A DNA stretch of 23,245 nt from positions 1 to 23,245 of the IMG/VR virus record IMGVR_UViG_3300046522_000214, one strand, 5' to 3'. This document shows positions 1,301 to 16,040 of the stretch, one piece after another; the stretch's first letter is position 1; every line of letters begins with the position of its first letter. Position numbers and translations under genes: made by a program. Source of the stretch: a virus. The notes under the pieces were generated by a model. It did not search any database. It was given only the letters and a program-made list of their open reading frames with translations, and was not told the origin of the DNA.

Positions 1301-3995
1301 AACGGCGAATTATTTCCACGCCTTCAATACGGGGGTGCAGGATAAGACCGCGTTGCCGCGCGTCGATCTGGAGCGCATGCGGCTTGCGGCCGAAGACCAG
1401 ACCAATTTCCTCTGCAAGGCGACTGGTCCCGCCTTCATGCGCCCCGGCCTGCAATATCTGACGCCATCTGCCGGCAATGCCGAATGCATGATCAAAGAGT
1501 TCATCTTCGGTGCGACCGATGCCGCGTTGCTGGAATTCTCCAGTCAGGCGCTGCGAGTCTTCGTAGATGATACGGTGGTCACGCGGGCGGCAGTCTCCAG
1601 CACCGTCACCAATGGCGATTTCTCGTCAGCGACAGGCTGGACAACGACCGGCGTTGATGGTGGCACGGCCGTCATCTCCGGCGGCAAGCTGACGCTGAAC
1701 GCCAACAACGTCAACGCCATCGCCAAGTGCGGCCGATCGGTCTCCACCTCATCCCCTGGCATTGAGCATGCATTGCGCGTCGTGGTCGATCGCGGCCCGG
1801 TCACATTTCGTTGCGGCTCATCCACTGGCGCCGACGACTACATTGCCGATACAGAGCTTGCGACGGGCACGCATTCCCTGGCCTTCACGCCATCCGGATC
1901 GTACTACGTCCAGTTCTCCAGCACGAACATCATCATCAACAGGATCGTTGACAGCATTCAGGTCGAGGCGGCCGGCATCATGTCGCTGCCAACACCCTGG
2001 TTTCTGGCCGATCTCACCAATATTCGCATCGCTCAATCTGCCGATGTCTGCTATGTCGCATGCGCTGGAATCCAGCAACGCCGCATCGAGAGGCGGTCGC
2101 AGCGGTCATGGTCGGTCTGCCTCTACGTCTGCGATGATGGCCCATTCCAGGCCAGCGGCCGCGCCAGCATCCGGCTTCGCCCGCTGGCCCTGAACGGCAA
2201 TACAGCCCTGCAATCGAACGCGGCATATTTCACGGCAGACCATGTCGGAGCGATGTTCAAACTGTCGCACTCCGGCCAGTATGTCAGGCAGAACCTTTCC
2301 TCTGCCGACAGTTACACCGATCCGATACGGGTGTCTGGCATCAGCACCGGCGTCAACGACCGGAACTTCACGGTCACCTTGACGGGCACATGGGTCGGGA
2401 CGGTTACGCTCGAACGTTCCTATGATGGCCCGGATACCGGCTTCGTGTTCGTGAAGTCGTGGACGGCCAATACGGTCGAGACGACCGGCGACACCGACGA
2501 CAACTCGATCTATTGGTATCGTGTCGGCTTTCGCCCGAGCGAATACACATCCGGCACGGTCACTGCTCAAATCGTCTATGATGGCGGCGGCGGTTATGGG
2601 ATCTGCCGGGTAACGGCCTTCACATCATCGACCCTCGTCAGCGTCGAAGTCCTGAAGTCGTTCAAGCGTGAGGAGTATACGCTTGACTGGAGCGAGGGAG
2701 AGTGGTCCGACAATGCCATCTGGCCTTCCGCCGTCGTCCTTTCCGATGGCAGGCTGTGGTGGTCTGGGCAGGACAGGATATGGGGCTCGGTCTCCGACGC
2801 TTTCGCAAGCTTCGATGAGGAAACGGAAGGCGACAGCGGCCCGATCTCGCGCTCGATCGCGACCGGCGGCGTCAATGACACCAAATGGCTGCTTTCGCTT
2901 CAAAGGCTGCTGGTCGGCACGGAAGGCGCCGTTGCAACGGTCAAGTCGTCTTCGCTTGACGAGCCGCTGACGCCTACGAACTTCGGCATCCGGGATTCCT
3001 CGACGACTGGGGCGGCTTCCATCGACCCGATCAAGGTCGATGCGCGCGGCATCTTCGTGGAGCGCGCAGGGAGCGCCTTGCTCGAGCTGACCTTTGATGG
3101 CACGGCATCGGACTATAACGCCACGCAGATCAGCAAGCTTACGACCGACATCTTCGCCAGCGGCGTTTGCTCGATCGCCATCCAGCGCCGTCCCGATACC
3201 CGCATTTGGCTTTGCATGAACGATGGGACTGCTGTCGCCATGGTCTATGAGGCTGACCAAGAGGTTCTGGCCTTTATCCCGATGGAAACGGATGGTGACT
3301 TCGAAAGTGTTGCGGTGCTGCCGGATCTCGTTCAAGACCGGGTGTATTTCTCGGTCAAGCGCACCATCAACGGCAGCGATGTTCGCTATATCGAAAAGAT
3401 GGCGATGGATTCCGAGGCCAGGCCGACGACCCTGTGCAAAGTGATGGATTCGTTCAAGAGCGGGACCAATGGGCCGGCGTCCACAACCATCGCCGTCGGC
3501 ACACATTTGGCCGGTGAAGCGGTGGCCGTGTGGGCCGATGGTGAACCCTTGGAAACCTCACGCGGCGTTCCAGCGACCTTTACAGTGGATGTGAGCGGCA
3601 ACATCACAGTGCCGGCAACCGTCACGAATTGGGTTGCAGGCCTTCCCTATCAGGCTCGCTACAAGTCGGCGCGTCTGGCCTACGGTGGAGACATTGGAAC
3701 GGCCATGCTCCAGAAGAAGACGGTTGACAGCGTCGGGCTCGTTCTTACCGATTTCGTGCGGCAAGGGCTCAAAATAGGCGCATCATTCGATGATCCCTAT
3801 CGCCCGCTCGACAATCTGCCGATCATGGCCGATGGCGCGACACAGTCGGATATCGTCTCAAGTGTCATTCGCGACGAGCAGGCGATCCCGTTCGCCGGCG
3901 AGTGGAACACCGATTCACGCGTCTGTATCGCTTGCCAGAGCCCTTATACAGGCACACTCCTTGGCCTCGTGCTGACGATCACGACGAACTCCTGA
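1293..3995 (+). CDS. Tail tubular protein B / tail nozzle (T7 gp12-like)
   Basis: This 900-residue protein starts with GTG, overlapping the adaptor gene by eight bases; GAGAG upstream serves as a weak ribosome binding site. The N terminus has the nozzle signature: a FNTGVQDKTALPRVDLERM stretch, an N-F-L segment, then FMRPGLQYL. The C terminus has the matching conserved end, with GLVLTDFVRQGLKIG and later FAGEWNTDSRVCI. Nozzle proteins assemble as a hexamer at the tail tip and form the DNA exit channel. Residues about 105-228 look like an inserted beta-sandwich (NGDFSSATGWT, then Gly/Thr-rich strands) of the carbohydrate-binding CBM_4_9 type. Family members vary widely in such inserts. The gene is followed directly by the gp13-like gene through an ATGA-type overlap. 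Confidence 0.85.
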   Translation: MARTANYFHAFNTGVQDKTALPRVDLERMRLAAEDQTNFLCKATGPAFMRPGLQYLTPSAGNAECMIKEFIFGATDAALLEFSSQALRVFVDDTVVTRAAVSSTVTNGDFSSATGWTTTGVDGGTAVISGGKLTLNANNVNAIAKCGRSVSTSSPGIEHALRVVVDRGPVTFRCGSSTGADDYIADTELATGTHSLAFTPSGSYYVQFSSTNIIINRIVDSIQVEAAGIMSLPTPWFLADLTNIRIAQSADVCYVACAGIQQRRIERRSQRSWSVCLYVCDDGPFQASGRASIRLRPLALNGNTALQSNAAYFTADHVGAMFKLSHSGQYVRQNLSSADSYTDPIRVSGISTGVNDRNFTVTLTGTWVGTVTLERSYDGPDTGFVFVKSWTANTVETTGDTDDNSIYWYRVGFRPSEYTSGTVTAQIVYDGGGGYGICRVTAFTSSTLVSVEVLKSFKREEYTLDWSEGEWSDNAIWPSAVVLSDGRLWWSGQDRIWGSVSDAFASFDEETEGDSGPISRSIATGGVNDTKWLLSLQRLLVGTEGAVATVKSSSLDEPLTPTNFGIRDSSTTGAASIDPIKVDARGIFVERAGSALLELTFDGTASDYNATQISKLTTDIFASGVCSIAIQRRPDTRIWLCMNDGTAVAMVYEADQEVLAFIPMETDGDFESVAVLPDLVQDRVYFSVKRTINGSDVRYIEKMAMDSEARPTTLCKVMDSFKSGTNGPASTTIAVGTHLAGEAVAVWADGEPLETSRGVPATFTVDVSGNITVPATVTNWVAGLPYQARYKSARLAYGGDIGTAMLQKKTVDSVGLVLTDFVRQGLKIGASFDDPYRPLDNLPIMADGATQSDIVSSVIRDEQAIPFAGEWNTDSRVCIACQSPYTGTLLGLVLTITTNS

Positions 3996-4357
3996 TGCTG
4001 CAGATCGTTCAGGTGCCTCCGACAGCCATAGAGGCAGCGGAGGGGATCAAGATCGATCTTCCGACTGTTGCCTATATCGGGGTCGATGATGGTGAGATAG
4101 TCGGCTCCGGCGGGCTGGCATGGGGCGCCGGACGCTGCTGGATCTGGCTTCGAACCGAAAGAACGCGGCCTGAATACGCGATCCCGCTCATGCGCCAGAC
4201 AAGGAAGCTGATGGCCAAGGCAAGGCAGTTCGGCGAAACCAACGTGTTTACGCCTCGCGATGCGGCATATCCGACGTCTGAAAAGCTACTAAAGGTCTTG
4301 GGGTTTGAAATGCACGGCATTGAAGAAGGCTTGGAGGTCTGGCGATGGCAGCTCTAA
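3995..4357 (+). CDS. GNAT-fold phage protein (T7 gp13-like)
   Basis: This is a 120-residue protein. I place the start at the ATG at 3995, which overlaps the nozzle stop codon; an upstream in-frame ATG at 3902 lies within the nozzle gene and is less likely. The sequence has the layout of a GNAT acetyltransferase fold: beta strands around VAYIGVDDGEIVGSGG, a WIWL strand, a long helix with PLMRQTRKLMAKARQFG, a VFTPRD strand, then the C-terminal SEKLLKVLGFEMHG motif typical of GNAT ends. T7 gp13, an internal virion protein needed for morphogenesis, also has an acetyltransferase-like fold and sits between gp12 and gp14, as here. The classical acetyl-CoA Q/RxxGxG/A motif is not visible, so I would not claim enzymatic activity. 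Confidence 0.7.
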   Translation: MLQIVQVPPTAIEAAEGIKIDLPTVAYIGVDDGEIVGSGGLAWGAGRCWIWLRTERTRPEYAIPLMRQTRKLMAKARQFGETNVFTPRDAAYPTSEKLLKVLGFEMHGIEEGLEVWRWQL

Positions 4358-4782
4358 CGGCGATTGCCGGTATCGTCTCCGCTGTCGGCACTATTGCGGC
4401 TGGCAAGGCTGAGCAGAACAACCAGAACTACGTTGCCAAGCAAGAGGACATGAAGGCCAAGGAAGAAATGGCCTCATCTCAGCGCGAGGCGCAACAGAAC
4501 CTCAATGAGGCGGATCTCGCCAATTCCAGGGCTCAGGCATTGGCCGCGTCGTCTGGTGGCGGCGCTGGCGCGGAAGCCCCGACGATTGTCAAGCTCATGA
4601 GCGACACGGCAGGGCAGGGCACGCTGAACGCCAACACCACGCTCTATGGCGGCATGGAACGCGCCTCCGGCTTGAGAGACAGCGCCAAGGGTCGCAGGGC
4701 AGCCGGCAAGGCATCGTTCCTTGGTTCCGTCCTCGGCGGCTTCGGGCAGGCCGCTGGCGGCTTCAGCAAAGCATTCGGCTAG
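4345..4782 (+). CDS. Internal virion protein (T7 gp14-like)
   Basis: This 145-residue protein overlaps the GNAT-like gene by 13 bases. GGAGG eight bases before the ATG supports the start. The N terminus is an Ala/Gly-rich hydrophobic helix (AALTAIAGIVSAVGTIAAG), followed by a long amphipathic helix rich in Gln, Glu and Ala (residues 22-70), an Ala/Ser/Gly-rich hinge, and a second Gly/Ala-rich hydrophobic end (SFLGSVLGGFGQAAGG). This matches small gp14-type ejection proteins, which leave the capsid first and form the outer-membrane part of the DNA translocation channel. Its stop codon sits in a CTAG palindrome that also supplies the stop codon of the minus-strand endonuclease gene. Confidence 0.75.
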   Translation: MAALTAIAGIVSAVGTIAAGKAEQNNQNYVAKQEDMKAKEEMASSQREAQQNLNEADLANSRAQALAASSGGGAGAEAPTIVKLMSDTAGQGTLNANTTLYGGMERASGLRDSAKGRRAAGKASFLGSVLGGFGQAAGGFSKAFG

Positions 4783-5381
4783 TCAAGCCACGCCCATGTC
4801 TTTCGCTCTTGGATTGATCTGACCGTACTAGGGGAGATGTTGAACTTATCAGCTAGGTATTTCAATGTCCTAGCTCCTTTTAGGGTCAGTATCTCTCGGG
4901 CTTGCACATCAGTTATTTTGCAGCTTCCTTGGCGGATACCACGATTTGATGTGCCATGCAGAAGTTTGTCTGCTTGGTTATCTTTCGAGGTTTTCCATTC
5001 CAGATGGTGGGGATTAACACAGCCGAGATGCCCTTTCCCGCAGTTGTGGGCGGCTTCGTGCGTGGGTGAGGGTGGAGCGCCGTGGACGATTTCGCAAACA
5101 TATCTGCTGGCGAGCGCCATCCTCCCGTCGACAGAAACATGCCCATAACCATTGGTGCTTTTGCAAAACGGCCAAAGAAGGCAGTCGGCGCCCTGATAAA
5201 GGATAGCTATTTCGTGAATGAACTGCATCGGCTCACCACGGGACGTTCGTCCGCTCAATGGGTTGCCATATCTATTGAAGCGTTTGTAATGCGCGCGGCA
5301 ATAGCCTTTGCATCCCTTGGCACTGTAGTGGGAGTTCTTGTTGCAGTTGTCGACAGAGCATGGAATAAAATCGGTAGCCAT
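4779..5381 (-). CDS. HNH homing endonuclease
   Basis: This is a 200-residue protein on the opposite strand to all its neighbours. The start is the ATG at 5381, set by GGAGG eight bases upstream; a TTG at 5396 would overlap that ribosome binding site. Domains in order: an N-terminal zinc-finger-like part (C8, C13, C24, C28, H31); an HNH_3-type nuclease core with H112, CVNPHHLEW (N123, H125, H126) and N135; and a C-terminal helix-turn-helix (residues 155-195, with LADKFNISPSTVRSIQ) likely to bind DNA. Such free-standing endonucleases cut a target in related genomes lacking the gene and spread by repair. Base composition differs from the neighbours: 52 of 120 bases are G or C at 4801-4920, against 42 of 60 at 4681-4740. 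This fits recent invasion between the gp14-like and gp15-like genes. Confidence 0.88.
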   Translation of the reverse strand: MATDFIPCSVDNCNKNSHYSAKGCKGYCRAHYKRFNRYGNPLSGRTSRGEPMQFIHEIAILYQGADCLLWPFCKSTNGYGHVSVDGRMALASRYVCEIVHGAPPSPTHEAAHNCGKGHLGCVNPHHLEWKTSKDNQADKLLHGTSNRGIRQGSCKITDVQAREILTLKGARTLKYLADKFNISPSTVRSIQERKTWAWLD

Positions 5382-5389
5382 TATTCGAA

Positions 5390-5394
5390 CCTCC
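5390..5394 (-). promoter_or_regulatory. Ribosome binding site of the HNH endonuclease
   Basis: GGAGG on the minus strand lies eight bases before the ATG at 5381. It decides between this ATG and the TTG at 5396, which overlaps the site itself. Confidence 0.75.
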
Positions 5395-5412
5395 AATGTT
5401 CGGTTTGGTCAG

Positions 5413-5445
5413 AACCCGTCGCGGTGGTGAGACACCCGGCGGGTT
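5413..5445. other. Strong hairpin upstream of the gp15-like gene
   Basis: AACCCGTCG (5413-5421) pairs with CGGCGGGTT (5437-5445), with one G-U pair. After a bulged C, GGTG (5423-5426) pairs with CACC (5433-5436), closing a GTGAGA loop. This gives about 13 base pairs. No T run follows on either strand, so an intrinsic terminator is unlikely. It lies in the leader between the endonuclease start and the gp15-like ribosome binding site. An RNA processing or stability element, like the RNase III sites between T7 late genes, is one possibility (inference). Confidence 0.45.
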
Positions 5446-5479
5446 CGCTGATTCTACCAGTCGCGGCTGGAAATTCAAA

Positions 5480-5484
5480 GAGGA
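5480..5484 (+). promoter_or_regulatory. Ribosome binding site of the gp15-like gene (TTG start)
   Basis: GAGGA lies eight bases before the TTG at 5493. It supports the rare TTG start over the next in-frame ATG at 5556, which would remove 21 residues that look like the normal N terminus of this family. Confidence 0.6.
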
Positions 5485-5492
5485 AGTCATAA

Positions 5493-8400
5493 TTGGCACG
5501 CCTTCCAAGCAAGTTCGATCTCAGCCAGCAGCCGTCGGGCCGCTCGGGTCGCCAGATGGCTGAGTATGATGTGTCTGGCCTTGGCCGTGGAATCGCCAAC
5601 CTCGGGCAGGATATCGCCTCGATCGGCGCCGATGTTCAGAGGCAGAGGAACACGGTGGATCTCGCGCGCGCCGAAGCGGCCAAGGCTCAAGGCTTCATCG
5701 AGACCGAGAACGCCTTCGACAATGACGGCGACTATTCGACCTTCAAGCAGCGCGCTCCGAAGCAGACCGGCGAAATCGTCACCAAGGCAGCCGATCTCAT
5801 CCGCGATCCGCAGATGCGCGAGCGTTGGAAGCTCGGGGCCCAGACCGATGCGGCCCGCGTCAACGATTCCATCGGCGACAAGGCGCACAATCTCGGCAAG
5901 CAGGCCGAGACGGTTGCCTTCGACGACGCGCTGGAAACGAACCGCCGCATCTATGTCGATCCGAACACCTCGGAAGATGCCAAGGCCAAGGCGCGCGCTG
6001 ACATCGATGGCGCTATCGCGACCGGCGAACAGAGCGGCTTGCTCACCCCGGCACAGGCTGCGGCCCGTCGTGACCAGTATATCAAGAACGCTGACTTCAA
6101 CCGGGCCAAGCTCGAGGTCGAGCGGGATCCGTCGAAGTTCACCCCCGGCGATGTCGTTGATCGGATCATCGGCGTCGAGAGTGGCGGCAACGCGAGCGCC
6201 AAGAACCCGAACTCATCCGCCACAGGTGCTGGTCAGTTCATCGACTCCACATGGCTGGCGACGGTCAAATCGCATCGTCCAGACCTATTCCAGGGCCGGA
6301 GCGCCGCCGACGTTCTCGAACTGCGGAAGGACAAGGCGCTCTCTCGCGAGATGACGTCATATCTGGCGAACGATAATGCCGACTTTCTCCGCAATCAGGG
6401 CGTCAGCCCTACCGGCGGCGATATCTATCTGGCGCACTTCCTCGGACCGGCCGGCGCGGCGCGCGTCATCAAGGCAGACCCAGGCGCCACGGTTGAAAGC
6501 GTGGTCGGGCAAGACGTCGTCAATGCCAATCCGTTCCTGAAGGGAATGACGGCCAATGACGTACGGTCGTGGTCGGCAAAGAAGATGGGGTCGGAAGCCC
6601 CGGCCTATTTCAAGAACCTTTCGCCGGAAGAGCAACAGGTCGTCTATAACCAGGCGGAGACCCGTCGCCGTGAAATCGCGGTCGAGCAGCGCGGCAATAT
6701 CGAGACCGTCATCCAGAACGCTCCAGCGGCCATACAGAACACCGGGACATACGATGGGGCAGTTCCATCCCGATCCGAGTTCATGGACGCCTACGGGCCC
6801 CAGGATGGCAGCGAGCGCTATAACAAGTTCTCCGCCGCTCTCGATGTCAGCCAGCAGGCCTATAACTTCCGCACCATGTCGGCCGAGGACATTCAGTCGG
6901 CGGTCAATGAGGCAAAGCCGGTATCGAGCGGCAATGATGCGGCGATCGAGACGGCACGCTATGACATGCTGTCAAAGGCCGCTGAAAGCACGCTTGCCGC
7001 CCGCAAGGCAGATCCATCCACCTATGCGCAGCAGGCGTTCCCGAACGTCGCACGGGCTTGGGAAGATGCGTCGACGACCGGCAACTATCAGGCTGCGATG
7101 AATGTCACGGCTCAGGCTCAGCAGCAGCTTGGCATCAAGGACATGAAGCTTCTGCCGAAGCAGGTGGCCGATAGTTCCGCCGTGGCCTTCAATAACCCGG
7201 ATGCCACGGACGATCAGCGGCTCGGCGCGGTCAACTCTCTGATATTCTCGACGGCAGACCCGAAGCAGCGCCAGGCCGTGTTCAAGCAGTTGGTGGATGC
7301 AGGCGTGCCGGCAATGACGGAAGGCGCGGTAGAGGCGGCAGCGCGCGGCGATACCGGCGCGGCCAAGCGGCTGATGCAGGCGGCCTTGACCGATGCGTCG
7401 AAGCTTCCGAAGTCCGGGGACATCAAGCCGGCCGATATCGACAACTCGCTCTATTCGAATGTCTGGGCGCCTGGATCGATCGGCGATGCGACCTATGGCG
7501 TTGGCTATGGCGATGCATCGAGCCTTGAGCGGGCGCAGCGCGGCGGCGAACTGATGAAGAAGGCCGTCCAGCTTCGCATTTCGCAGGGGCAGGATCTGGA
7601 GTCGGCTGTCTCTGGCGCTTCAAAGGATCTCTTCGGCGACAAGAAGGTCTATGACGGCTCATGGTCGGTGCATGCCAATCTGCCGGTCCCGAGCGATACC
7701 GACGAGACGACGCTGACAAACGGCCTCGATGCGGCCAAGACCTCGTTCAAGGCGGCGCTTGAGATGCAGCGGGACAAGATCGTGGGTGGCAATGTCTCTC
7801 CCGCTCCGACCGGCGAATTCAAGGGTTTGGTGTCTCCGGGCAATATCGATCTCGCCAAGCGGCCGACGGTCAAGAACGAAGACGGCTCGATCAGCACGGT
7901 TCGCTCCATGTCTTTCAATGAGGACGGCAAGGAAATCCTCGTCCCGACAGTCTCGCCGGATGGCAAGATCATGACTGACGAAGAGGCAATCGACCTCTAT
8001 CACCAGACCGGCCAGAACCTCGGCGTCTTCGCCGATGCAGGCTCGGCTGACGCTTATGCCTCGGCACTGCATGACGCTCAGGCGAAATATTATGATCCGG
8101 CAAGGGCGAGCACCAAGGCCATCCTCGATACGTCAACACAGAACCGCGTCGATGACATCCTTGAAAACGGTGTCTTCGTAGTGACCGGCGATGGCGTCGG
8201 GCTGCGCGATCCGTATACCGGCCAGTTCGTTCCAGGCAGCGATGGCGTCACGCCGCTGTCCCTGCCGCTGCAAACCATACTTGATCTCGGGGCTAACCGT
8301 CCGCGCTCGAATGAAGCTGGTGGTCGATATCTGAGCGGGGAATCGAATACGGAGGTATCTCCCACGGCCAAGCGCTATATGGAGGGCAAGCCCGTTACCA

Positions 8401-8519
8401 AGGAGCCCTCACCCGTAGCCAAGCAATGGCTTCAGGGCGGCGCCACCGCGCAGCCAGACGCGCAGCCAGACGCGCCAGCACCCGCATCGACAGACAATGG
8501 TGGCGGGGGCGGTTTCTGA
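5493..8519 (+). CDS. Internal virion protein with lytic transglycosylase domain (gp15/gp16-like)
   Basis: This 1008-residue protein starts at TTG with GAGGA eight bases upstream. The N-terminal 215 residues are helical. Residues about 220-345 form a lysozyme-like transglycosylase (SLT) domain: GVESGG contains the catalytic Glu (E229), followed by SATGAGQFIDSTW and a DIYLAHFLGPAGAARV stretch. This domain would cut peptidoglycan locally during DNA ejection. In T7 the equivalent domain sits in gp16; here it is in the first large ejection gene. The middle, about 370-760, is long and helical with no recognised domain. Residues 774-868 carry a module seen repeatedly in phage structural proteins, with GLVSPGNIDLAKRP, STVRSMSF and ILVPTVSPDG. 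The end is Pro/Ala/Gly-rich with a duplicated AQPD. It overlaps the next gene by ATGA. Confidence 0.85.
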   Translation: MARLPSKFDLSQQPSGRSGRQMAEYDVSGLGRGIANLGQDIASIGADVQRQRNTVDLARAEAAKAQGFIETENAFDNDGDYSTFKQRAPKQTGEIVTKAADLIRDPQMRERWKLGAQTDAARVNDSIGDKAHNLGKQAETVAFDDALETNRRIYVDPNTSEDAKAKARADIDGAIATGEQSGLLTPAQAAARRDQYIKNADFNRAKLEVERDPSKFTPGDVVDRIIGVESGGNASAKNPNSSATGAGQFIDSTWLATVKSHRPDLFQGRSAADVLELRKDKALSREMTSYLANDNADFLRNQGVSPTGGDIYLAHFLGPAGAARVIKADPGATVESVVGQDVVNANPFLKGMTANDVRSWSAKKMGSEAPAYFKNLSPEEQQVVYNQAETRRREIAVEQRGNIETVIQNAPAAIQNTGTYDGAVPSRSEFMDAYGPQDGSERYNKFSAALDVSQQAYNFRTMSAEDIQSAVNEAKPVSSGNDAAIETARYDMLSKAAESTLAARKADPSTYAQQAFPNVARAWEDASTTGNYQAAMNVTAQAQQQLGIKDMKLLPKQVADSSAVAFNNPDATDDQRLGAVNSLIFSTADPKQRQAVFKQLVDAGVPAMTEGAVEAAARGDTGAAKRLMQAALTDASKLPKSGDIKPADIDNSLYSNVWAPGSIGDATYGVGYGDASSLERAQRGGELMKKAVQLRISQGQDLESAVSGASKDLFGDKKVYDGSWSVHANLPVPSDTDETTLTNGLDAAKTSFKAALEMQRDKIVGGNVSPAPTGEFKGLVSPGNIDLAKRPTVKNEDGSISTVRSMSFNEDGKEILVPTVSPDGKIMTDEEAIDLYHQTGQNLGVFADAGSADAYASALHDAQAKYYDPARASTKAILDTSTQNRVDDILENGVFVVTGDGVGLRDPYTGQFVPGSDGVTPLSLPLQTILDLGANRPRSNEAGGRYLSGESNTEVSPTAKRYMEGKPVTKEPSPVAKQWLQGGATAQPDAQPDAPAPASTDNGGGGGF

Positions 8520-10546
8520 TGACCTTCAGCTTCATCCAGAACCCGACCGGCCAGGCGATGACGGATAGCGATCTCGTCACCTCGGCGCTCGATCAGCCGA
8601 TGTCGCTTGGTTCGACGTTCTGGGATCAGACCAAGGGCGGCGTGCTGGAAAGCTTCGGGCTCGGCACGGCCATCCGCAGTCTGTCAGTCCCGGAAGCCGT
8701 GCCGCCGGAATCAGACAGCTCGATCGTCAACACGCTCAGCGCCGTCAACCGTGCGATAGCACCGGAGACCATCGTCAGACGGATTGCCGGCACGGTCTAT
8801 GATGGCTCACAGTCGATCACCGAAGACCAATACAAGCAGTCCCCATCATTCCGCAAAGACATCCCTTGGCAGCAGGGCATGACTGAAGAGCGCGCGGCGG
8901 CGCTTGCGGAGCAGGATGACGTCAAGCAGGTTCGCGCCTTCTACGGACAGAAACGGCCGGTCACAGCGTTCTTCGGCAACCTTGCAGGCCAAGCCGTCGA
9001 TCCGATCAACTATATCCCGATTGCCGGTGAAGCGGTGCAGGCCGCAAACGTCGCCCGTTTCGGCAGAGTGACCGGCAAAGCGCTGACATCGGCGCTCGAT
9101 GCCGCGGCCAATACCGCCATTGCAGGACTTTCAACGGCATCGGAGCGCGGCCAGCTTGGCGACGACGTGTCGTGGCAGTCGACGGTCTCTCAGATCGCCA
9201 TGGCCGCGATGATCGGCGGAGCATTCGGCGCCATCCATGGCCGCTTCGGTCGGTCGACACCGGCAGAACTCAGGGCAGAGGCAGAGGCAAAGCTCGCCAC
9301 GCTCGACAATGTGCAGGCTTCGCGGGTCTCGCTGAACGACGCGCTTGACGGGATGATCCGGGACAGTGAGGTCAATCTCTCCCCGGCCAGCAGTGAGTTC
9401 GTTGCCAAGGCAGCTGATCAGGAACTGCCGAAGGTGCAAGGCTACAGGCCAGAGTATGAGCTGCAGCGGGTCGAGGATGGACAGGCTGCCATTTCGGCAG
9501 ATCAGATTGATCGCGTATCAAGGACAGTTCCAGATCCAGGACAGGCGCCAAAGCGCCCACAAACCCTATTTGACTTCCTCGCATCCTCTGGCGGCATCAA
9601 AGAAGATGCAGGCGAACTGAAATCCCTTGGCGTTTCGCGGAAGTTTGTGCCTGGCCGAGGTGCGCTTGTCCGCAAAAGTGGGATGGCGCTCGACAAGGCT
9701 CGGGAAGCGGCGGCACAAGCCGGTTACTTCGACCATCTCTACGGCTCCGCAGATGAGGCTACCGCAAAAAGCACGGTGAGAGACCTCCTTGATCTGGTTG
9801 ACCAAGAGGCAAGAGGCACGCCAGCCTATTCGATGGCTGAAAGCGATCGGGTACAATCATTGTCCGACCACGCCGCCGCTGTGGAGAGACGCGACGACTA
9901 TAAGAAATTCGTCAAAGATTTGTCGGATACCCTGAACGAGAACAAGATCGGCGTCTCGGTTGACGACGCTATCCTTGCCCGCGCAACTGACATTATGGTA
10001 GAAGAGAAGCTCTCTCCGCTCGATGCTTTTGATAAGGCGGTCCTAGAGGACGAAGCGCGGCTCGAGGCGTCTCTGTCTGAACGTGGGATTAGTTATAGCA
10101 ATGACCCAGATTATGCAGACATCCCCTTCTTCGACGAACCGGGGCCAACTTCTATTGAAGCGGGCGGAATTGCTGGAGAAGCGCAGCGCGGCGGCGGACC
10201 CGGAGGATTCGAAGGAAATGCTTCGGATCGCCGGCAACCTGCGGGCGCTCTCGGCTCTTCGCTCCAAAGCGTAGATAGATCAGTCCCGGCCGACCCTGTT
10301 GACCCAGCAGTCGCGCAGGCCGCAACGCGCGTCGGCAAGCCAGAGGCAACCCGCGCTTTAGCTGAACAGTATCGCGTCAATCCTGAAACCGGCGACTTCC
10401 CGGAGCTTGCCGACATCGAGCAGTTGCGCACCGAAGGCCGGTTGACCGAGGACGATCTCGCCGCGCTCGACGATGCCGACGAAGTCATCAAGACGGCGAA
10501 TGCCTATGGTGAAGCCCTGAAATCCTTTGCATCATGTGTGATATAG
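8519..10546 (+). CDS. Large internal virion protein with polyvalent-type module
   Basis: This is a 675-residue protein. I choose the ATG at 8519, which overlaps the previous stop, rather than the ATG at 8426, which would add a basic stretch encoded inside the upstream gene. Residues 1-255 resemble the N-terminal part of large ejection proteins: WDQTKGGVLESFGLGTAIR, then DPINYIPIAG and an Ala/Gly-rich hydrophobic segment (IAMAAMIGGAFGAIHG, about 222-237) that could enter a membrane. Residues 350-435 form a distinct module (LFDFLASSGGIKEDAGELKSLG, then FVPGRGALVRKSGMALDKA). I associate it with the accessory domains of phage and plasmid polyvalent proteins, whose function is mostly unknown. Residues 440-550 are charged and helical. 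The stop abuts the next start (TAGATG). A structural role is inferred from position and size. Confidence 0.7.
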   Translation: MTFSFIQNPTGQAMTDSDLVTSALDQPMSLGSTFWDQTKGGVLESFGLGTAIRSLSVPEAVPPESDSSIVNTLSAVNRAIAPETIVRRIAGTVYDGSQSITEDQYKQSPSFRKDIPWQQGMTEERAAALAEQDDVKQVRAFYGQKRPVTAFFGNLAGQAVDPINYIPIAGEAVQAANVARFGRVTGKALTSALDAAANTAIAGLSTASERGQLGDDVSWQSTVSQIAMAAMIGGAFGAIHGRFGRSTPAELRAEAEAKLATLDNVQASRVSLNDALDGMIRDSEVNLSPASSEFVAKAADQELPKVQGYRPEYELQRVEDGQAAISADQIDRVSRTVPDPGQAPKRPQTLFDFLASSGGIKEDAGELKSLGVSRKFVPGRGALVRKSGMALDKAREAAAQAGYFDHLYGSADEATAKSTVRDLLDLVDQEARGTPAYSMAESDRVQSLSDHAAAVERRDDYKKFVKDLSDTLNENKIGVSVDDAILARATDIMVEEKLSPLDAFDKAVLEDEARLEASLSERGISYSNDPDYADIPFFDEPGPTSIEAGGIAGEAQRGGGPGGFEGNASDRRQPAGALGSSLQSVDRSVPADPVDPAVAQAATRVGKPEATRALAEQYRVNPETGDFPELADIEQLRTEGRLTEDDLAALDDADEVIKTANAYGEALKSFASCVI

Positions 10547-13432
10547 ATGGCCGATAACGAATTCGTTCGCTCCTCCTGCTATGCCGCCGCGGCAAATGCT
10601 GCAAAGGCCGCTGGCGCCGAACTGAGCGAGCGTGACCTCGCGAGCGCCTTCCGTGCCGCACAGGACGAGAAAGCCCGTCTCAAGGCCGCCGGCATTACCG
10701 ACAACGTCGCCGATCGGATGAAGGGCATCGCCGAACAGACGGCGGAGCGCACCCGCATCGCCGCTGCCCTGCAGAAGAAGCATGCAGCGCTGAACATCCT
10801 GGCGCGCGATCGGCTTGAGCAGACCATCGAAGCCTTCAAGAAGGCCGGTCTGTCGCCAAGGGATTCGATCCTTGCGGTCATGGAAGGCTCACAGCAGGGT
10901 ATTGCGGGGGCGCGGGACTCGGTATCGGCGAGGCGTCTCGGCTATGAGGCCCGCTATGTCGGCGGCATGATGGCGGAAATTCAGAAGGATCGGCCGCATC
11001 TGGTCAACGTCCTTTCCGACAAGCGCCTATCCGACGACGTCTTTCGCGAGATGGGCGAGCTGCGCGAGGGCGGCAAGCCCGGGGTGACCGGCAATGAGGA
11101 TGCCAAATATCTAGCTGACGTTTTCGCCAAGCATGTCGAGGCGAGCCGCACCGATCTGAACCGCCTCGGCGCGTCGATCGGCAAGCTCGACGGCTGGGCC
11201 GGCGCTCAGGTCCATGACGACATGAAGATGATGCAGGCGGGCAAGGAGACATGGATCGACGGTATCGCGCCGCTGCTTGATCTCAATCGCACCTTCCCGG
11301 ATGCCGCATCTGCCGACGAGGTCAAGAAGATCCTCGGCGACATGTACGACACGATCATCACCGGGGTTCCGAACAAGGAGACGGCCAAGGAGAAAGGCCA
11401 GCGCGTCAACCCGGCCAATCTGGCGAAGTCGCTCGGCAAGACCCGCGTGCTGCATTTCAAGGACGCCGAAAGCGCCATCTCTTACCGGGATGCGTTCGGC
11501 TACGGCAATTCGATCTATGGCATCATGTCTCATCAGCGCCGTGCCGCGAATATGGCCGCGCAGATGGATATGTTCGGCCCGAACCCGGAAGTGATGTTCA
11601 ACAGCCTGGTCGAGGGCGAGCGCCGCAAGCTTCGCGATGATCAAAGCCTCTCGCCGCAGGACAAGGTCAAGCAGATCCAGAAACTGAACGCCGATGCCGG
11701 CCCGCTGCGTGGGGCCTTCGATGTCATGTCCGGCGCCATCTCGCGGCCTGGCAATGTCAATGCCGCAAAGATCGGCAACGATATCCGGGCCGTCCAGAGC
11801 ATGGCAAAGCTTGGTGGCGCGGTGCTGACTGCCATGCCGACGGATGTGGTCGGCGCGGCTCAGGCGGCGATGTTCCGCGGCTCCGGCTTCTTCAATGGCA
11901 TGGTCAAGCAGATCGGCGGCATCATGAAGGGACGCCCGAAGGCAGAGCAGGCCGAAATCTCCTATCTCTTCGGGGAGGGCTTTGACAGCCTGATCGGCGA
12001 TGTTCTCTCGCATGGCCTCGCCAATGACGGCCCGGTCGGCAAGATGAGCAAGCTGACGGAAACCTTCTTCAAGTGGAACGGGCTCAACTGGTGGACCGAT
12101 GTCGGCCGCTCCGTCGTCGGCCGCACGGTCGCCGCCGAGATGGGCATGCGCGCCGATACCGCCTTCAAGGATCTGCCGGCGAACTATTCGCATGTGCTCG
12201 GTCTGCATGGCATCGGAGAAAAGCAATGGGAAGCCCTACGGCAGGCGACACGGCGCGAGGCTGGCGGGAACGCCTACATCACGCCCGACGCCATCCGTGA
12301 CCTTCCTGACGGCGCTGTTGAGCCATTGGTCGCCAGTCGGCTAGGCGTGACGAAGAAAGCTCCGCCACCGAAGGAAGGAAAGACCCGCTTCTATTATGGT
12401 GCGGCAGATCCGGCGCATGATGTCCGGACACAAGATGATCTTTGGGTAGCTCCGCAAGAAGACTATGCAAAGAACTACCGCGCCGCGCCCGAGGGCAACA
12501 CGCTCTGGTATGTGGATGTCCCGGATGATCAGCTCGTCGCTCTCAAAATCAGGGATGACATCAACAATTACAACATCATCGGCAAGCTCCCGAAGGAATG
12601 GGCACAAAAGGCAAAGCGGCTCGAAACACAAAGCTCTGTATCGCCGGAGCGCAAAGCCGAAATCCTTGAGCAAGGCCGCCGAGATCTGGAACTCCAAGCA
12701 CTTCGCTTCGTCGCCGATGAAACCAACTATGCCATCGTAGAGACAGACGCCGCATCGAGACGCATCTCCACCCTTGGCACCCGGCCGGGAACAATCGCCG
12801 GAGAATCCGCCCGCTTCGTGATGCAGTTCAAGGGGTTCCCGATCGCCTTCAGCCAGCGCATCCTTGGGCGCGCGCTGTTCGGCGGCCGCGGCGCCTCCAA
12901 ATACGAGCGCATCATGAACAATGCTCCGCATCTCGGGGCGCTGATCGGCGGGCTCACCGTCGCCGGCTATATGGCAATGACCATGAAGGATCTGGTCAAG
13001 GGCAACTGGCCGCCGCGCGATCCGCTCGACCCGAAGGTTCTGACCGCAGCGCTGACGCAGGGCGGGGCGCTCGGCATCTACGGGGATTTCCTGTTCGGCC
13101 AGCAGAACCGCTTCGGCTCCGGCGCCCTTGAGACGTTCTCCGGCCCGTTCATCGGCACCATGAGCGATATCATCAATGTTCCGCTGAAAGCCCGATCGGC
13201 ACTGGAGAAGGGAGAGCGGCCGCAGATGGCCGGCGATATCCTCAATCTGGCGCTGAACAATACGCCATTCATCAATCTGGCCTATGTCCGGCCGGCTCTG
13301 GATGTGCTGTTCATCAACTCGCTGAGAAATTGGGCAAGCCCCGGCTATGTCAATCGCCAGCAGCGCAACCGCATCAAAGACTATGGCCAGCGCCCGCTAC
13401 TGCCAGCCACGCTATCAGAAGTGCTCCGATAG
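10547..13432 (+). CDS. Large internal virion / DNA ejection protein (gp16-like) with ADP-ribosyltransferase-like insert
   Basis: This 961-residue protein begins directly after the previous stop. It is almost entirely helical, with recurring family segments: SAFRAAQDEKARL near the start, GNSIYGIMSHQRRAANMAAQM in the middle, and a C-terminal third with RFVMQFKGFPIAFSQRILG, followed by hydrophobic helices (LGALIGGLTVAGYMAMTM) likely to enter the inner membrane. Proteins of this type leave the capsid with the genome and form the periplasmic tunnel. Residues about 603-698 interrupt the conserved core. They read like a compact ADP-ribosyltransferase-type fold: RFYYGAADPAHDV, DLWVAPQEDYAKNYRAA, then LWYVDVPDDQLV. 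The insert is somewhat lower in GC (130 of 240 bases at 12361-12600, my count). The final 59 bases overlap a minus-strand membrane protein gene. Confidence 0.8.
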   Translation: MADNEFVRSSCYAAAANAAKAAGAELSERDLASAFRAAQDEKARLKAAGITDNVADRMKGIAEQTAERTRIAAALQKKHAALNILARDRLEQTIEAFKKAGLSPRDSILAVMEGSQQGIAGARDSVSARRLGYEARYVGGMMAEIQKDRPHLVNVLSDKRLSDDVFREMGELREGGKPGVTGNEDAKYLADVFAKHVEASRTDLNRLGASIGKLDGWAGAQVHDDMKMMQAGKETWIDGIAPLLDLNRTFPDAASADEVKKILGDMYDTIITGVPNKETAKEKGQRVNPANLAKSLGKTRVLHFKDAESAISYRDAFGYGNSIYGIMSHQRRAANMAAQMDMFGPNPEVMFNSLVEGERRKLRDDQSLSPQDKVKQIQKLNADAGPLRGAFDVMSGAISRPGNVNAAKIGNDIRAVQSMAKLGGAVLTAMPTDVVGAAQAAMFRGSGFFNGMVKQIGGIMKGRPKAEQAEISYLFGEGFDSLIGDVLSHGLANDGPVGKMSKLTETFFKWNGLNWWTDVGRSVVGRTVAAEMGMRADTAFKDLPANYSHVLGLHGIGEKQWEALRQATRREAGGNAYITPDAIRDLPDGAVEPLVASRLGVTKKAPPPKEGKTRFYYGAADPAHDVRTQDDLWVAPQEDYAKNYRAAPEGNTLWYVDVPDDQLVALKIRDDINNYNIIGKLPKEWAQKAKRLETQSSVSPERKAEILEQGRRDLELQALRFVADETNYAIVETDAASRRISTLGTRPGTIAGESARFVMQFKGFPIAFSQRILGRALFGGRGASKYERIMNNAPHLGALIGGLTVAGYMAMTMKDLVKGNWPPRDPLDPKVLTAALTQGGALGIYGDFLFGQQNRFGSGALETFSGPFIGTMSDIINVPLKARSALEKGERPQMAGDILNLALNNTPFINLAYVRPALDVLFINSLRNWASPGYVNRQQRNRIKDYGQRPLLPATLSEVLR

Positions 13433-13748: not shown

Positions 13749-16040
13749 ATGACATCGATCTCGATTGACCGAACCGACGGGCTGTCTTCGGCCGCCGCCA
13801 TCAAAGGCCCGTGCAAGGCGGCCACGACCGTCAACATCACGCTCTATGGCGAGCAGACGATTGACGGTGTCGCCATCGTGACCGGCGATCGGGTGCTGGT
13901 GAAAAACCAGACGGCGGCCTATGAGAACGGCATCTATGTCTGCGACACCGGCCAATGGCGTCGGTCGAAGGACTTCAATCGGACGAACGATGTCGTCAAG
14001 GGCACGACTGTTTTTGTCACGGATGGCACCGTCAACGCCGGAACCAACTGGATCGTCACGTCAAGCAATCCGGTCGTCATCGGCACGAGTTCTATTTCGT
14101 TTGTGAGCATCGCGGCGCCGGCCGGCAGCGTCAGCACCGCCGCGATACAGGACGGCGCCGTCACGACTCCAAAGATCGCCGACGGGGCTGTGACCACGGT
14201 CAAGATCGCCGACGATACCGTGACGGCTGCGAAGATTGCTCCTGGCACAATCATTCAGACCGTCCTTACTCGGACTGCCCTGAAGGCGCTCGACACGACG
14301 AAGGCGACAACGGCCTATCTCAAGGAAGCCGGACGTGAAGGCGTCTTCAAATGGACGACCGGCAATTTCTCGACGCAGATCACCGCCGATACCGCCGAGG
14401 GCATCTATATCAAGGCGAATGCAATTGCCTCCACGGCGGGCGCATGGGTGCGCGCTTATGTCGGTTTGGCAGACATGCGTTGGTATGGCGCGATCGGAGA
14501 CGGAACGACCGACGACACGGCTGCAGTTGCAGCGGCATTCGCGGCTGGCGTTACCCTGTCCGGTGCTAAGAAGACTTACGCGGTGACCGGGAACGTGTCG
14601 CTACCAGCAAACATCAATCTTTCCGACGCAGCTTTCAAGCAGCTGACACCGAACAGCACGACCCGCAAGACACTCTTCGCCAACGGCGTCAGCAATGTAA
14701 CGCTGCTGCGTGTGACGGTGGACAGGAACGGCAACGGCCTGGGCGGCTCGCTTTCGACAGCGGCTGGCATATGGGTTACCGGCGGGTCGGGACACTACCT
14801 TGAAGACTGCGAAGTCTATGGTTCCGATATGGGCTCGGGTATCGTTATCAGCGGCGCGTCTAACTTCAATGTTGTGCGTCCCAAGATCCACGATATTCTC
14901 TACGTCTCTGCGTCTCTGCCGCCTGACGACCAGACGCAGGGCCTTTGGTTCAGCGCCTGCACCGACTTCTCTGTTCTGGAGCCAAGGATTTATCACATCG
15001 GCGGCATCGTCGGCGGTTCGTTCCGCCAGGCCTTTGGCCGGATGATGCCGTTCGGTCTTGGCTGCTCTTACTTCCGCGTCGTCGGTGGCGAGCTATACGA
15101 CGGTGACGTCGGTATCGACCTGACCGGCTCGGCGGGTAATTTCAACTTCGTGCTGATGGGCGTCACCGTTCGCGATGTCGAGACATGGGGCATCAAGCTT
15201 GCCAACTACAACCGTTTCGGCATGGTGATCGGCTGCAATGTCCACCGTGCGGGATCGGCAGGTTTTGTCGGTAGCGGCCCGACGGTTGACGTCGACCCGG
15301 ATAGCCCGGTTCCTTCCAGCCTCCCACAGCGGGTAAGCTTCGTTGGTTGCGGTGCCTGGAGCACAGGCTTTGGTAACACCGGGCGCGGAACGTCTCAGCC
15401 CGCTGGATTCCTGATCATCCCAGGCGCCGCGCCAAGCTATCAGGATTATCCGCGCGGCTACAGGTTCGTAAGCTGCACCGCGGTCGACAACCAGACAGTG
15501 AAAACCCAATATGACGGGTTCCGGAATGAGGTCTCCTATGGCGGCGCGCCGCTCAATGAAATGGTGGATTGCCGTTCCGGTGGCTATGCCGCTGGCGGGC
15601 ATCATTCCTTCGGGTTCCATTATCCGGCCTGCCGTGTTTACAACAGCGCCTCCGTCGCCATCCCGAACACCACAACAACGACGATCGGTTGGGATAGCGA
15701 AGACTATGACGGCGCTGCGATGCACAGCACGTCGGTTAACAATGATACGATCTTCGTACCGCACCCTGGCTGGTATCATGTCGACGCGGTTGTCATGGTG
15801 GCTGCGAGCGGTACGGGCACACGCACGATCCGCATTACCCAAGGCGGCGTCGTTCAGACACGGCTCAGGAGCCAGTCACCCGGCCTGTCATCCGGAGACC
15901 ACACGCTCACGATCAGTGGCGACGTCTATGTGAGCGATATAACGGGCGGCATTCGGGTGGATATAACGCAGACCTCAGGCGGCAGCTTGAACGTGCTGAC
16001 CAATTCGAGCCTGTCTGTCCGGCAGGTCTTGTTCAACTGA
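13749..16040 (+). CDS. Tailspike / tail fibre with beta-helix and C1q-like C-terminal domain
   Basis: This is a 763-residue receptor-binding protein. GAGGA a few bases before the ATG supports the start. Residues 20-125 form an N-terminal virion-attachment type region (VLVKNQTAAYENGIYVC, then a GTNWIVTSS segment). Residues 135-164 are three ten-residue repeats of the form DGAVTTxKIA, a common stalk element. From about 237, WYGAIGDGTTDDTAAV marks the start of a pectate-lyase-type right-handed beta-helix running to about 620, rich in Gly, Asn and short strands. Residues 630-763 look like a TNF/C1q-type jelly roll (SVAIPNTTTTTIGW, then VPHPGWYHVDAVVMV), which often trimerises or binds ligand. Such spikes bind and often cleave capsular or O-antigen polysaccharide. 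A catalytic pair cannot be assigned by eye. Confidence 0.88.
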   Translation: MTSISIDRTDGLSSAAAIKGPCKAATTVNITLYGEQTIDGVAIVTGDRVLVKNQTAAYENGIYVCDTGQWRRSKDFNRTNDVVKGTTVFVTDGTVNAGTNWIVTSSNPVVIGTSSISFVSIAAPAGSVSTAAIQDGAVTTPKIADGAVTTVKIADDTVTAAKIAPGTIIQTVLTRTALKALDTTKATTAYLKEAGREGVFKWTTGNFSTQITADTAEGIYIKANAIASTAGAWVRAYVGLADMRWYGAIGDGTTDDTAAVAAAFAAGVTLSGAKKTYAVTGNVSLPANINLSDAAFKQLTPNSTTRKTLFANGVSNVTLLRVTVDRNGNGLGGSLSTAAGIWVTGGSGHYLEDCEVYGSDMGSGIVISGASNFNVVRPKIHDILYVSASLPPDDQTQGLWFSACTDFSVLEPRIYHIGGIVGGSFRQAFGRMMPFGLGCSYFRVVGGELYDGDVGIDLTGSAGNFNFVLMGVTVRDVETWGIKLANYNRFGMVIGCNVHRAGSAGFVGSGPTVDVDPDSPVPSSLPQRVSFVGCGAWSTGFGNTGRGTSQPAGFLIIPGAAPSYQDYPRGYRFVSCTAVDNQTVKTQYDGFRNEVSYGGAPLNEMVDCRSGGYAAGGHHSFGFHYPACRVYNSASVAIPNTTTTTIGWDSEDYDGAAMHSTSVNNDTIFVPHPGWYHVDAVVMVAASGTGTRTIRITQGGVVQTRLRSQSPGLSSGDHTLTISGDVYVSDITGGIRVDITQTSGGSLNVLTNSSLSVRQVLFN
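14151..14240 (+). repeat. Three 30-bp in-frame repeats in the tailspike stalk
   Basis: Three consecutive ten-codon units encode DGAVTTPKIA, DGAVTTVKIA and DDTVTAAKIA. They are typical of triple-stranded fibre stalks and can change copy number by slippage or recombination. Confidence 0.8.

What the first reader, a model, noticed from the sequence alone, without database searches (positions are those of the whole stretch)
12350..12640. ADP-ribosyltransferase-like domain inserted into a gp16-like DNA ejection protein
Seen: about 95 residues (603-698) interrupt the conserved C-terminal core, with lower GC than typical here and a pattern RFYYG, WVAPQEDYAKNY, LWYVDVPDDQL that resembles phage and polyvalent-protein ART-type folds. 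Known: ejection proteins enter the host cell with DNA. Inference: the phage may deliver an effector domain into the cytoplasm or periplasm at the moment of infection, to modify host or defence proteins.
Basis: partly seen in the sequence, partly recalled or inferred. Interest (0 to 1): 0.68.

Follow-up and report, generated by a model that had tools for sequence, protein, structure and literature searches.

The report
ART-fold cassette in phage ejection protein
A phage protein that is normally thrown into the bacterium together with the viral DNA carries an extra 95-residue piece that belongs to the ADP-ribosyltransferase-fold family of phage 'polyvalent' domains; a distant relative has a similar piece in the same place and close relatives carry other cargo, so these entry proteins look like swappable effector carriers, although this particular copy seems to have lost its usual active-site residues.

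Summary
ORF 10547-13432 (961 aa) is a phrog_684 internal virion (ejection) protein. Residues about 604-698 (nt 12356-12640) are an insertion: a 97%-identical relative (L001) has 17 bp where the window has 302 bp, and of 109 other aligned homologue rows only one (L077) carries a related segment there.

The insert belongs to a compact, roughly 85-residue domain family found in phage polyvalent-type proteins: a profile of 15 relatives, window excluded, scores it E 2.4e-13 (best of 5000 shuffles, 0.05). AlphaFold models of the insert and of L077's copy retrieve ADP-ribosyltransferase (ART)-fold structures, at low Z (5.2 and 4.0 at best). L077's ejection protein is 32% identical, with its domain in the same linker, apparently a separate acquisition. 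The neighbouring ejection-protein gene carries a Pfam ART-PolyVal domain in the window's closest relative. Another close relative has an HExxH-bearing insert elsewhere.

Activity is doubtful: at the strand-1 His/Arg position the window has Tyr, an otherwise invariant Ser is Ala, and the modelled last strand has no acidic residue. Most likely this is a captured ART-fold cargo domain delivered at infection, probably not a standard ART enzyme in this copy.

The parts
10547..13432 (+). 961-aa internal virion (ejection) protein, phrog_684, host of the insert
   Evidence: phrog_684 'virion structural protein' E 4.2e-162, residues 11-948; homologues annotated 'putative internal virion protein' in Pelagibacter phages
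12356..12640 (+). inserted segment, residues about 604-698 (net +95 codons, in frame)
   Evidence: absent in L001-L009 and L026-L028; L001 has 17 bp in place of 302 bp
12377..12622 (+). ART-fold domain proper, residues about 611-692
   Evidence: profile of 15 relatives, E 2.4e-13 on the insert; AlphaFold model pLDDT 70.4, pTM 0.62; ART-fold hits
12386..12400 (+). strand 1 motif RFYYG (residues 614-618); Tyr617 where 14 of 15 relatives have His and 1 has Arg
12437..12481 (+). strand 2 and following helix, DLWVAPQEDYAKNYR (residues 631-645); Trp633 at the aromatic position, Ala635 where 15 of 15 relatives have Ser
12503..12523 (+). strand 3, LWYVDVP (residues 653-659), Y655, D657, P659 invariant in 16 rows
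12566..12586 (+). last strand region NYNIIGK (residues 674-680), no acidic residue
8426..10546 (+). upstream internal virion protein (706 aa) whose middle is a second variable cargo site; ART-PolyVal there in L001 and, below cut-off, in G200
   Evidence: phrog_342 E 4.4e-9; alignment; Pfam PF18760 E 1.7e-11 in L001
9431..10222 (+). the window's own variable middle in the upstream protein (contains PQTLFDFLASSGGIKEDAGEL), shared with Rhizobiaceae-group prophages and with a polyvalent-type protein
   Evidence: phmmer E 4e-26 to 4e-21 in L032, L033, L055, L036, L053; 1.8e-6 in L059

Best explanation
A compact ART-fold domain of the kind found inside phage polyvalent proteins was captured, in frame, into a tolerant linker of a podovirus-type ejection protein. 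The ejection protein is packaged in the virion and leaves it with the DNA, so the domain rides along as cargo and reaches the host envelope or cytoplasm at entry (inferred from the family, not shown). In related copies that keep the usual His it would modify a host molecule early in infection (inferred). In this copy the strand-1 His is Tyr, an otherwise invariant Ser is Ala and the last strand has no acidic residue, so it most likely acts by binding, as a pseudoenzyme, or is decaying, rather than as a standard ADP-ribosyltransferase. Shown here: insertion, homology, second occurrence at the same site, residue state. Predicted: fold. Inferred: delivery and function.
For: Insertion and borders. 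Homology to the compact domain family: 33.2 bits, E 1.2e-8 in a search of about 5,500 sequences with a 5-sequence profile; 48.6 bits, E 2.4e-13 with a 15-sequence profile, best of 5000 shuffles 12.2 bits, E 0.052. Fold: window model pLDDT 70.4, pTM 0.62; of the 50 VIA rows, 49 are ART-superfamily entries by my reading of titles, best Z 5.2, rmsd 3.6, 77 residues, KptA. Relative L077: pLDDT 87.8, pTM 0.79, 48 of 50 VIA rows ART-superfamily by title, best Z 4.0. BFVD hits of the L077 model include several proteins named PolyVal ADP-ribosyltransferase or ART-PolyVal-like, none below E 0.001. Same site in L077: BLASTP aligns both inserts and both flanks; L077's close relative L082 (94%) lacks it. 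Residue state. Neighbouring gene carries Pfam ART-PolyVal in L001.
Against: Structural Z-scores are low and within the range the tool warns may mean only a common arrangement; Foldseek found no hit below E 0.001 for either model, and its own list for the L077 model was mostly unrelated chains (best E 0.94). No Pfam or PHROG family recognises the window insert; only one relative, L059, touches PF18760 in this segment, at E 0.11. A profile-profile comparison with three ART-PolyVal domains gave nothing (probability 0.8%). Delivery, NAD binding and any activity are untested. There is only one window-type sequence, so constraint on the altered positions cannot be measured.
Confidence: 0.62

Rival explanations
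1. Active ART effector: the domain still binds NAD+ and ADP-ribosylates a host or defence protein at entry, with Tyr617 and Trp633 doing the work of the usual residues, much as T4 Alt acts from the head.
For: Scaffold positions R614, Y616, G618, A641, Y655, D657, P659 are kept in all 16 rows, so the fold is probably maintained; strand-1 residue varies in the family (Arg in L160); T4 Alt is a known injected ART (PMC5512222, passages and section 9).
Against: Loss of the His or Arg at strand 1 and of the invariant Ser only in this copy, no acid in the modelled last strand; human PARP13, a well-known inactive member, has the same His to Tyr change (recalled, from no call).
Confidence: 0.2
2. Neutral passenger or decaying relic: a recent acquisition tolerated in a disordered linker, with no function.
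For: Found in one genome only among close relatives; lower GC than the gene; two family-conserved positions changed.
Against: Frame intact, and 11 of the 13 positions tabulated as conserved in at least 14 of 15 relatives are kept despite 20-40% overall identity; repeated capture of cargo in these proteins in different phages.
Confidence: 0.17
3. Structural elaboration: the insert has been recruited to build or stabilise the ejection channel and has nothing to do with host modification.
For: The same linker holds a long coiled-coil-like stretch (by eye) in Acinetobacter phage TPWB-05, so the site accepts non-enzymatic additions.
Against: 97%-identical phage L001 does without it; the domain recurs in unrelated protein contexts.
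Confidence: 0.1
4. Assembly chimera in the metagenome contig.
For: Single contig; read data not available.
Against: In-frame 285-bp net gain, matching flanks on both sides, homologous domain at the same site in L077, which comes from another record.
Confidence: 0.03

Closest known systems
ART domains of polyvalent proteins (Pfam PF18760 ART-PolyVal; Tox-ART-HYD2 clade, Iyer et al. 2017, PMC5512222)
   Same: Phage late-gene context; homologous compact copies sit inside large polyvalent-type proteins, one of which (L059) also has a full PF18760 and a PBECR5 domain; predicted ART fold.
   Different: About 85 residues instead of 140; the long middle section is missing; window has Tyr for the strand-1 His, Trp for the strand-2 Tyr and no strand-5 acid; carried by a virion ejection protein with a single recognised added domain, not a 2-15 domain polyvalent protein.
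T4 Alt
   Same: Concept: an ART packaged in the head and injected with DNA (PMC5512222, section 9 read).
   Different: Alt is a separate head protein of the R-S-E type; here the domain is spliced into an ejection protein and is of the H-Y-D-like side.
Ejection protein of L077 (IMGVR_UViG_2636416108_000001)
   Same: phrog_684 protein, compact ART-like domain in the same linker.
   Different: 32% identical overall; its domain keeps the His and Ser and is 69% identical to the copy in L069's neighbouring protein, so it probably has its own source.
N4-like virion RNA polymerases with ART domains
   Same: Ejected virion protein fused to an ART (PMC5512222, passages).
   Different: Different carrier protein; there the ART is one of several domains of a giant polymerase.

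Membership tests
phrog_684 internal virion / ejection protein | Full-length profile match | tested here: met
   E 4.2e-162, residues 11-948, profile 5-819 of 840
phrog_684 internal virion / ejection protein | Present in the virion and ejected with DNA | not testable with these tools
   inferred from homologues annotated as internal virion proteins
Compact ART-like domain family (15 relatives in A7) | Profile match by a model built without the window | tested here: met
   48.6 bits, E 2.4e-13 against 12.2 bits for the best of 5000 shuffles
Compact ART-like domain family (15 relatives in A7) | His (or Arg) after strand-1 Tyr, and Ser at end of strand 2 | tested here: not met
   Tyr617 and Ala635; relatives 14 His + 1 Arg of 15, and 15 Ser of 15
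ART superfamily fold | Predicted structure resembles solved ARTs | tested here: inconclusive
   ART entries fill the VIA lists of two models but at Z 5.2 and 4.0 at best; Foldseek E 0.053 at best
Pfam PF18760 ART-PolyVal | Score over the curated cut-off | tested here: not met
   window insert is not among the members matching PF18760 even at E 10; the one match is L059 at E 0.11
Tox-ART-HYD2 clade (polyvalent ARTs) | His in strand 1, Tyr in strand 2, Asp in strand 5 (PMC5512222 section 9) | tested here: not met
   Tyr617, Trp633 and no acid in residues 674-680; strand-5 alignment is uncertain
Polyvalent protein | 2-15 disparate domains in one polypeptide (PMC5512222 abstract) | tested here: inconclusive
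   one recognised added domain in this protein; a second variable segment lies in the neighbouring gene
T7/P22 gp16 | Homology to a solved gp16-type protein | tested here: inconclusive
   no convincing PDB sequence match for the profile of 9 homologues; fold of the carrier not predicted
ART enzyme | NAD+-dependent ADP-ribosyl transfer or NADase | not testable with these tools
   needs an assay

The most novel reading that the evidence does not exclude
Ejection proteins of this podovirus-type lineage are interchangeable effector carriers. A compact ART cassette moves as a unit between phage proteins and has landed twice, independently, in the same linker of the ejection protein. Sister phages load the same two genes with ART-PolyVal or an HExxH-bearing segment instead, so each phage brings a different set of host-acting domains in with its first proteins. 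The window copy would be a pseudo-ART that binds its target without modifying it.
Probability: 0.4. Interest if true: 0.75.

Novelty: new variant of a known kind. Interest (0 to 1): 0.6.

Why it matters
Injected ARTs are known from T4 Alt and predicted for polyvalent proteins, but the effectors have not, in what I could search, been tied to the short-tailed phage ejection proteins themselves. If right, the ejection proteins are a place to look for early anti-host and anti-defence domains: compare close relatives, find the insert, and the cargo is delimited to a few residues. It also gives a natural pair, L001 and the window (97% identical carrier without and with this cargo), for testing what an entry-delivered domain does.

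Tried and rejected
Sequence searches with the bare insert led nowhere at first: no Pfam family over its cut-off (two sub-threshold, E 0.058 and 0.099) and no PHROG, no viral contigs relative, no plasmid match, no PDB sequence match of note. The break came from weak Xanthomonas phage hits at E 0.2-0.9, which on translation proved to be the same domain.

Whole-genome scans for the domain: a profile of 3 rows gave 5 of 297 genomes of the family of Rhizobium BK251 at E 0.0125-0.041 and one of 6 rows 2 of 247 at E 0.001-0.003; I did not count these as members. With 16 rows, 0 of 385 genomes of the wider class, a search without a positive control.

Considered and dropped: assembly chimera; intein-like or transposon-like mobility (only a 7-bp shared word at the junctions, likely chance); a link of the carrier to T7 gp16 (no match). 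A profile comparison of the compact family with three ART-PolyVal domains failed. Foldseek on the L077 model against PDB was mostly noise. Cyanophage A4 pre-ejectosome chain 9k3a_B appeared at Z 2.8; its paper was not held, so I draw nothing from it. Literature: no paper held both 'ejection protein' and 'polyvalent protein', none held 'ejection proteins', 'effector domain' and 'inserted'; 'ejectosome' with 'ADP-ribosyl' gave 2 papers, seen in listing only. The library lacks most subscription journals.

Full report
Observation. The window is a 23,245-bp IMG/VR virus record. ORF 10547-13432 encodes 961 aa and matches phrog_684, 'virion structural protein', over residues 11-948, E 4.2e-162. Homologues in Pelagibacter phages are annotated 'putative internal virion protein'.

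It is an insertion. In viral contigs 22 loci encode relatives. The closest, L001, is 97% identical and lacks net 95 residues; L002-L008 (75-96%) and L009 (31-34%) lack them too, as do prophage copies in Rhizobium sp. BK251, Rhizobium sp. P40RR-XXII and Endobacterium cereale (L026-L028). At DNA level 302 bp in the window replace 17 bp in L001. The insert has 53.3% GC against 62.6% on average for the rest of the gene.

Survey. From 148 loci held at that point I collected 118 distinct ORFs matching a profile of the carrier; I dropped 8 shorter than 700 aa and the window's own copy, and aligned 109 with the window. Several rows are overlapping or near-identical copies of one gene, so 110 rows are fewer than 110 genes. 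Insertions of 50 aa or more occur in 5 of 110 rows: window (94 aa by this alignment, near residue 604), L077 (102 aa, same linker), Acinetobacter phage TPWB-05 (L145, two stretches of 104 and 79 aa at 598-604, coiled-coil-like by eye), L008 (248 + 59 aa around residue 275) and Stenotrophomonas phage BUCT708 (L144, 120 aa near residue 252). Eight further rows have a 26-aa insertion near residue 232. Thus there are two tolerant places, and the one near residue 600 is used by two ART-like domains and one other element. The L008 insert contains HESIH, a zincin-type motif by eye; no Pfam or PHROG family confirmed it.

What the insert is. Weak tblastn hits in seven Xanthomonas phages (E 0.2-0.9) pointed to a segment KVRVYHGG...VYFSTDRKYAEGYR...VYWIDI in a giant protein next to an HEMGH motif. 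Searching with it and with later finds brought relatives from viral contigs. Two lie in proteins of the ejection region: L077, in a phrog_684 protein itself, and L069, in the gene upstream of a phrog_684 protein. The others lie in very large open frames of about 1,290-2,915 residues, some cut by the locus end. In L060 and L061, which look like related proteins (L060: phrog_9880; L061 not scanned), the domain sits before or after the HELGH stretch, so it appears to move as a unit. The last scan added two more such large frames, L163 and L164, not used in the profiles. A profile of 5 relatives without the window scored the window insert at 33.2 bits (best of 5000 shuffles 10.6), and one of 15 relatives at 48.6 bits, E 2.4e-13 (best shuffle 12.2 bits, E 0.052). 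Homology to this compact family is therefore firm.

Fold. AlphaFold2 with 8 sequences gave pLDDT 70.4, pTM 0.62 for the window insert, with the order strand, strand, helix, strand, helices, strand. With 16 sequences the L077 insert gave pLDDT 87.8, pTM 0.79. For the window model the Foldseek list is led by tRNA 2'-phosphotransferase KptA/Tpt1 and ParT, best E 0.053. The VIA second look, 50 rows shown, holds KptA/Tpt1 (Z 5.2, rmsd 3.6, 77 residues), ParT, cholix, exotoxin A, Rhs toxins, an anti-CRISPR (6kyf), diphtheria toxin and PARPs; 49 of 50 rows are ART-superfamily by my reading of titles, in part from recall, the exception being 8dwq. For the L077 model 48 of 50 rows are, best Z 4.0, the exceptions being 8dwq and 9k3a_B, but Foldseek itself gave mostly unrelated chains. 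BFVD hits of that model include proteins named PolyVal ADP-ribosyltransferase and ART-PolyVal-like, none below E 0.001. One relative, L059, touches Pfam ART-PolyVal in this segment at E 0.11. The Z-scores are low, so I call the fold well supported but not proven.

Active site. Iyer et al. 2017 (PMC5512222; passages and section 9 read) describe polyvalent ARTs as having His in strand 1, Tyr in strand 2 and Asp in strand 5. In the 16-row alignment the strand-1 position is His in 14 of 15 relatives, Arg in one, and Tyr617 in the window. The aromatic position of strand 2 is Trp in 14 of 15 relatives and Phe in one, and Trp633 in the window. The Ser at the end of strand 2 is kept in 15 of 15 relatives and is Ala635 in the window. 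The last strand (NYNIIGK) has no acidic residue, though the alignment there is uncertain. Of 13 positions tabulated that are conserved in at least 14 of 15 relatives, the window keeps 11 and loses exactly positions 617 and 635. That pattern is what a pseudoenzyme would show; with one sequence it cannot be told from drift. Human PARP13, inactive, has the same His to Tyr change (recalled, no call).

Second capture at the same site. L077's carrier is 32% identical to the window's, and BLASTP aligns both flanks and both inserts in one path. Its 94% relative L082 has an empty site, as do L083, L084 and L089. L077's domain is 69% identical to the copy in L069's neighbouring protein but 29% to the window's, so separate acquisition is more likely than common descent with many losses; no tree was built. 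L069's neighbour is itself an insertion relative to the homologous protein of Salmonella phage SPN1S (L147), which lacks it.

The neighbouring gene is also a cargo site. The gene just upstream (8426-10546; phrog_342, E 4.4e-9) varies in its middle. In L001 it contains a Pfam ART-PolyVal domain, E 1.7e-11, over cut-off. In the window it holds another segment, shared with prophages of that family (E 4e-26 to 4e-21) and with the polyvalent-type L059 (E 1.8e-6). In L002 it holds another segment again that resembles a PBECR nuclease by eye only (no Pfam hit).

Reading. The simplest account is that ejection proteins of this lineage accept cargo domains in a few linkers and that phages exchange them. 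Because the carriers are internal virion proteins, the cargo would enter the cell at the start of infection (inferred). For T7, a review (PMC8954989, passages read) places the C-terminal part of gp16 in the host cytoplasm; whether the window's carrier is arranged alike is unknown. What this copy does is open: binding without catalysis is my first choice, activity second, relic third.

Novelty. ARTs in heads and in polyvalent proteins are known. An ART-like cassette inside the podovirus-type ejection protein, at a site used more than once, I did not find in print (searches, in a library that lacks most subscription journals). I rate it a new variant of a known kind.

Noticed in passing
L008:4826-5770: A 96%-identical relative carries about 307 extra residues at residue ~275 of the ejection protein with an HESIH motif, zincin-like by eye; no Pfam or PHROG match.
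   Followed up: partly
L001:1595-3994: The closest relative's upstream ejection protein (800 aa) holds a Pfam ART-PolyVal domain (E 1.7e-11) that the window's copy lacks.
   Followed up: yes
window 9431-10222: Variable middle of the upstream protein, with PQTLFDFLASSGGIKEDAGEL, shared with Rhizobiaceae-group prophages and a polyvalent-type protein; function unknown.
   Followed up: partly
L002:2096-3994 (same in L026, Rhizobium sp. BK251): A different cargo segment in the upstream protein that looks like a phage BECR-type nuclease by eye; no Pfam hit.
   Followed up: no
L144 (Stenotrophomonas phage BUCT708), residues near window 252: 120-aa insertion of unknown kind in the ejection protein.
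   Followed up: no
PDB 9k3a_B, residues 1418-1601: Cyanophage A4 pre-ejectosome chain appears among ART-fold rows of the L077 model at Z 2.8; may hold an ART-like domain, not checked.
   Followed up: no
L160, ORF 2748-8447: A divergent member of the compact family has Arg in place of His at strand 1.
   Followed up: no
window 13749-16040: Probable tailspike or tail fibre with an endosialidase-type N-terminal extension (PF12218, E 2.8e-4, below its cut-off) and a weak beta-helix match.
   Followed up: no
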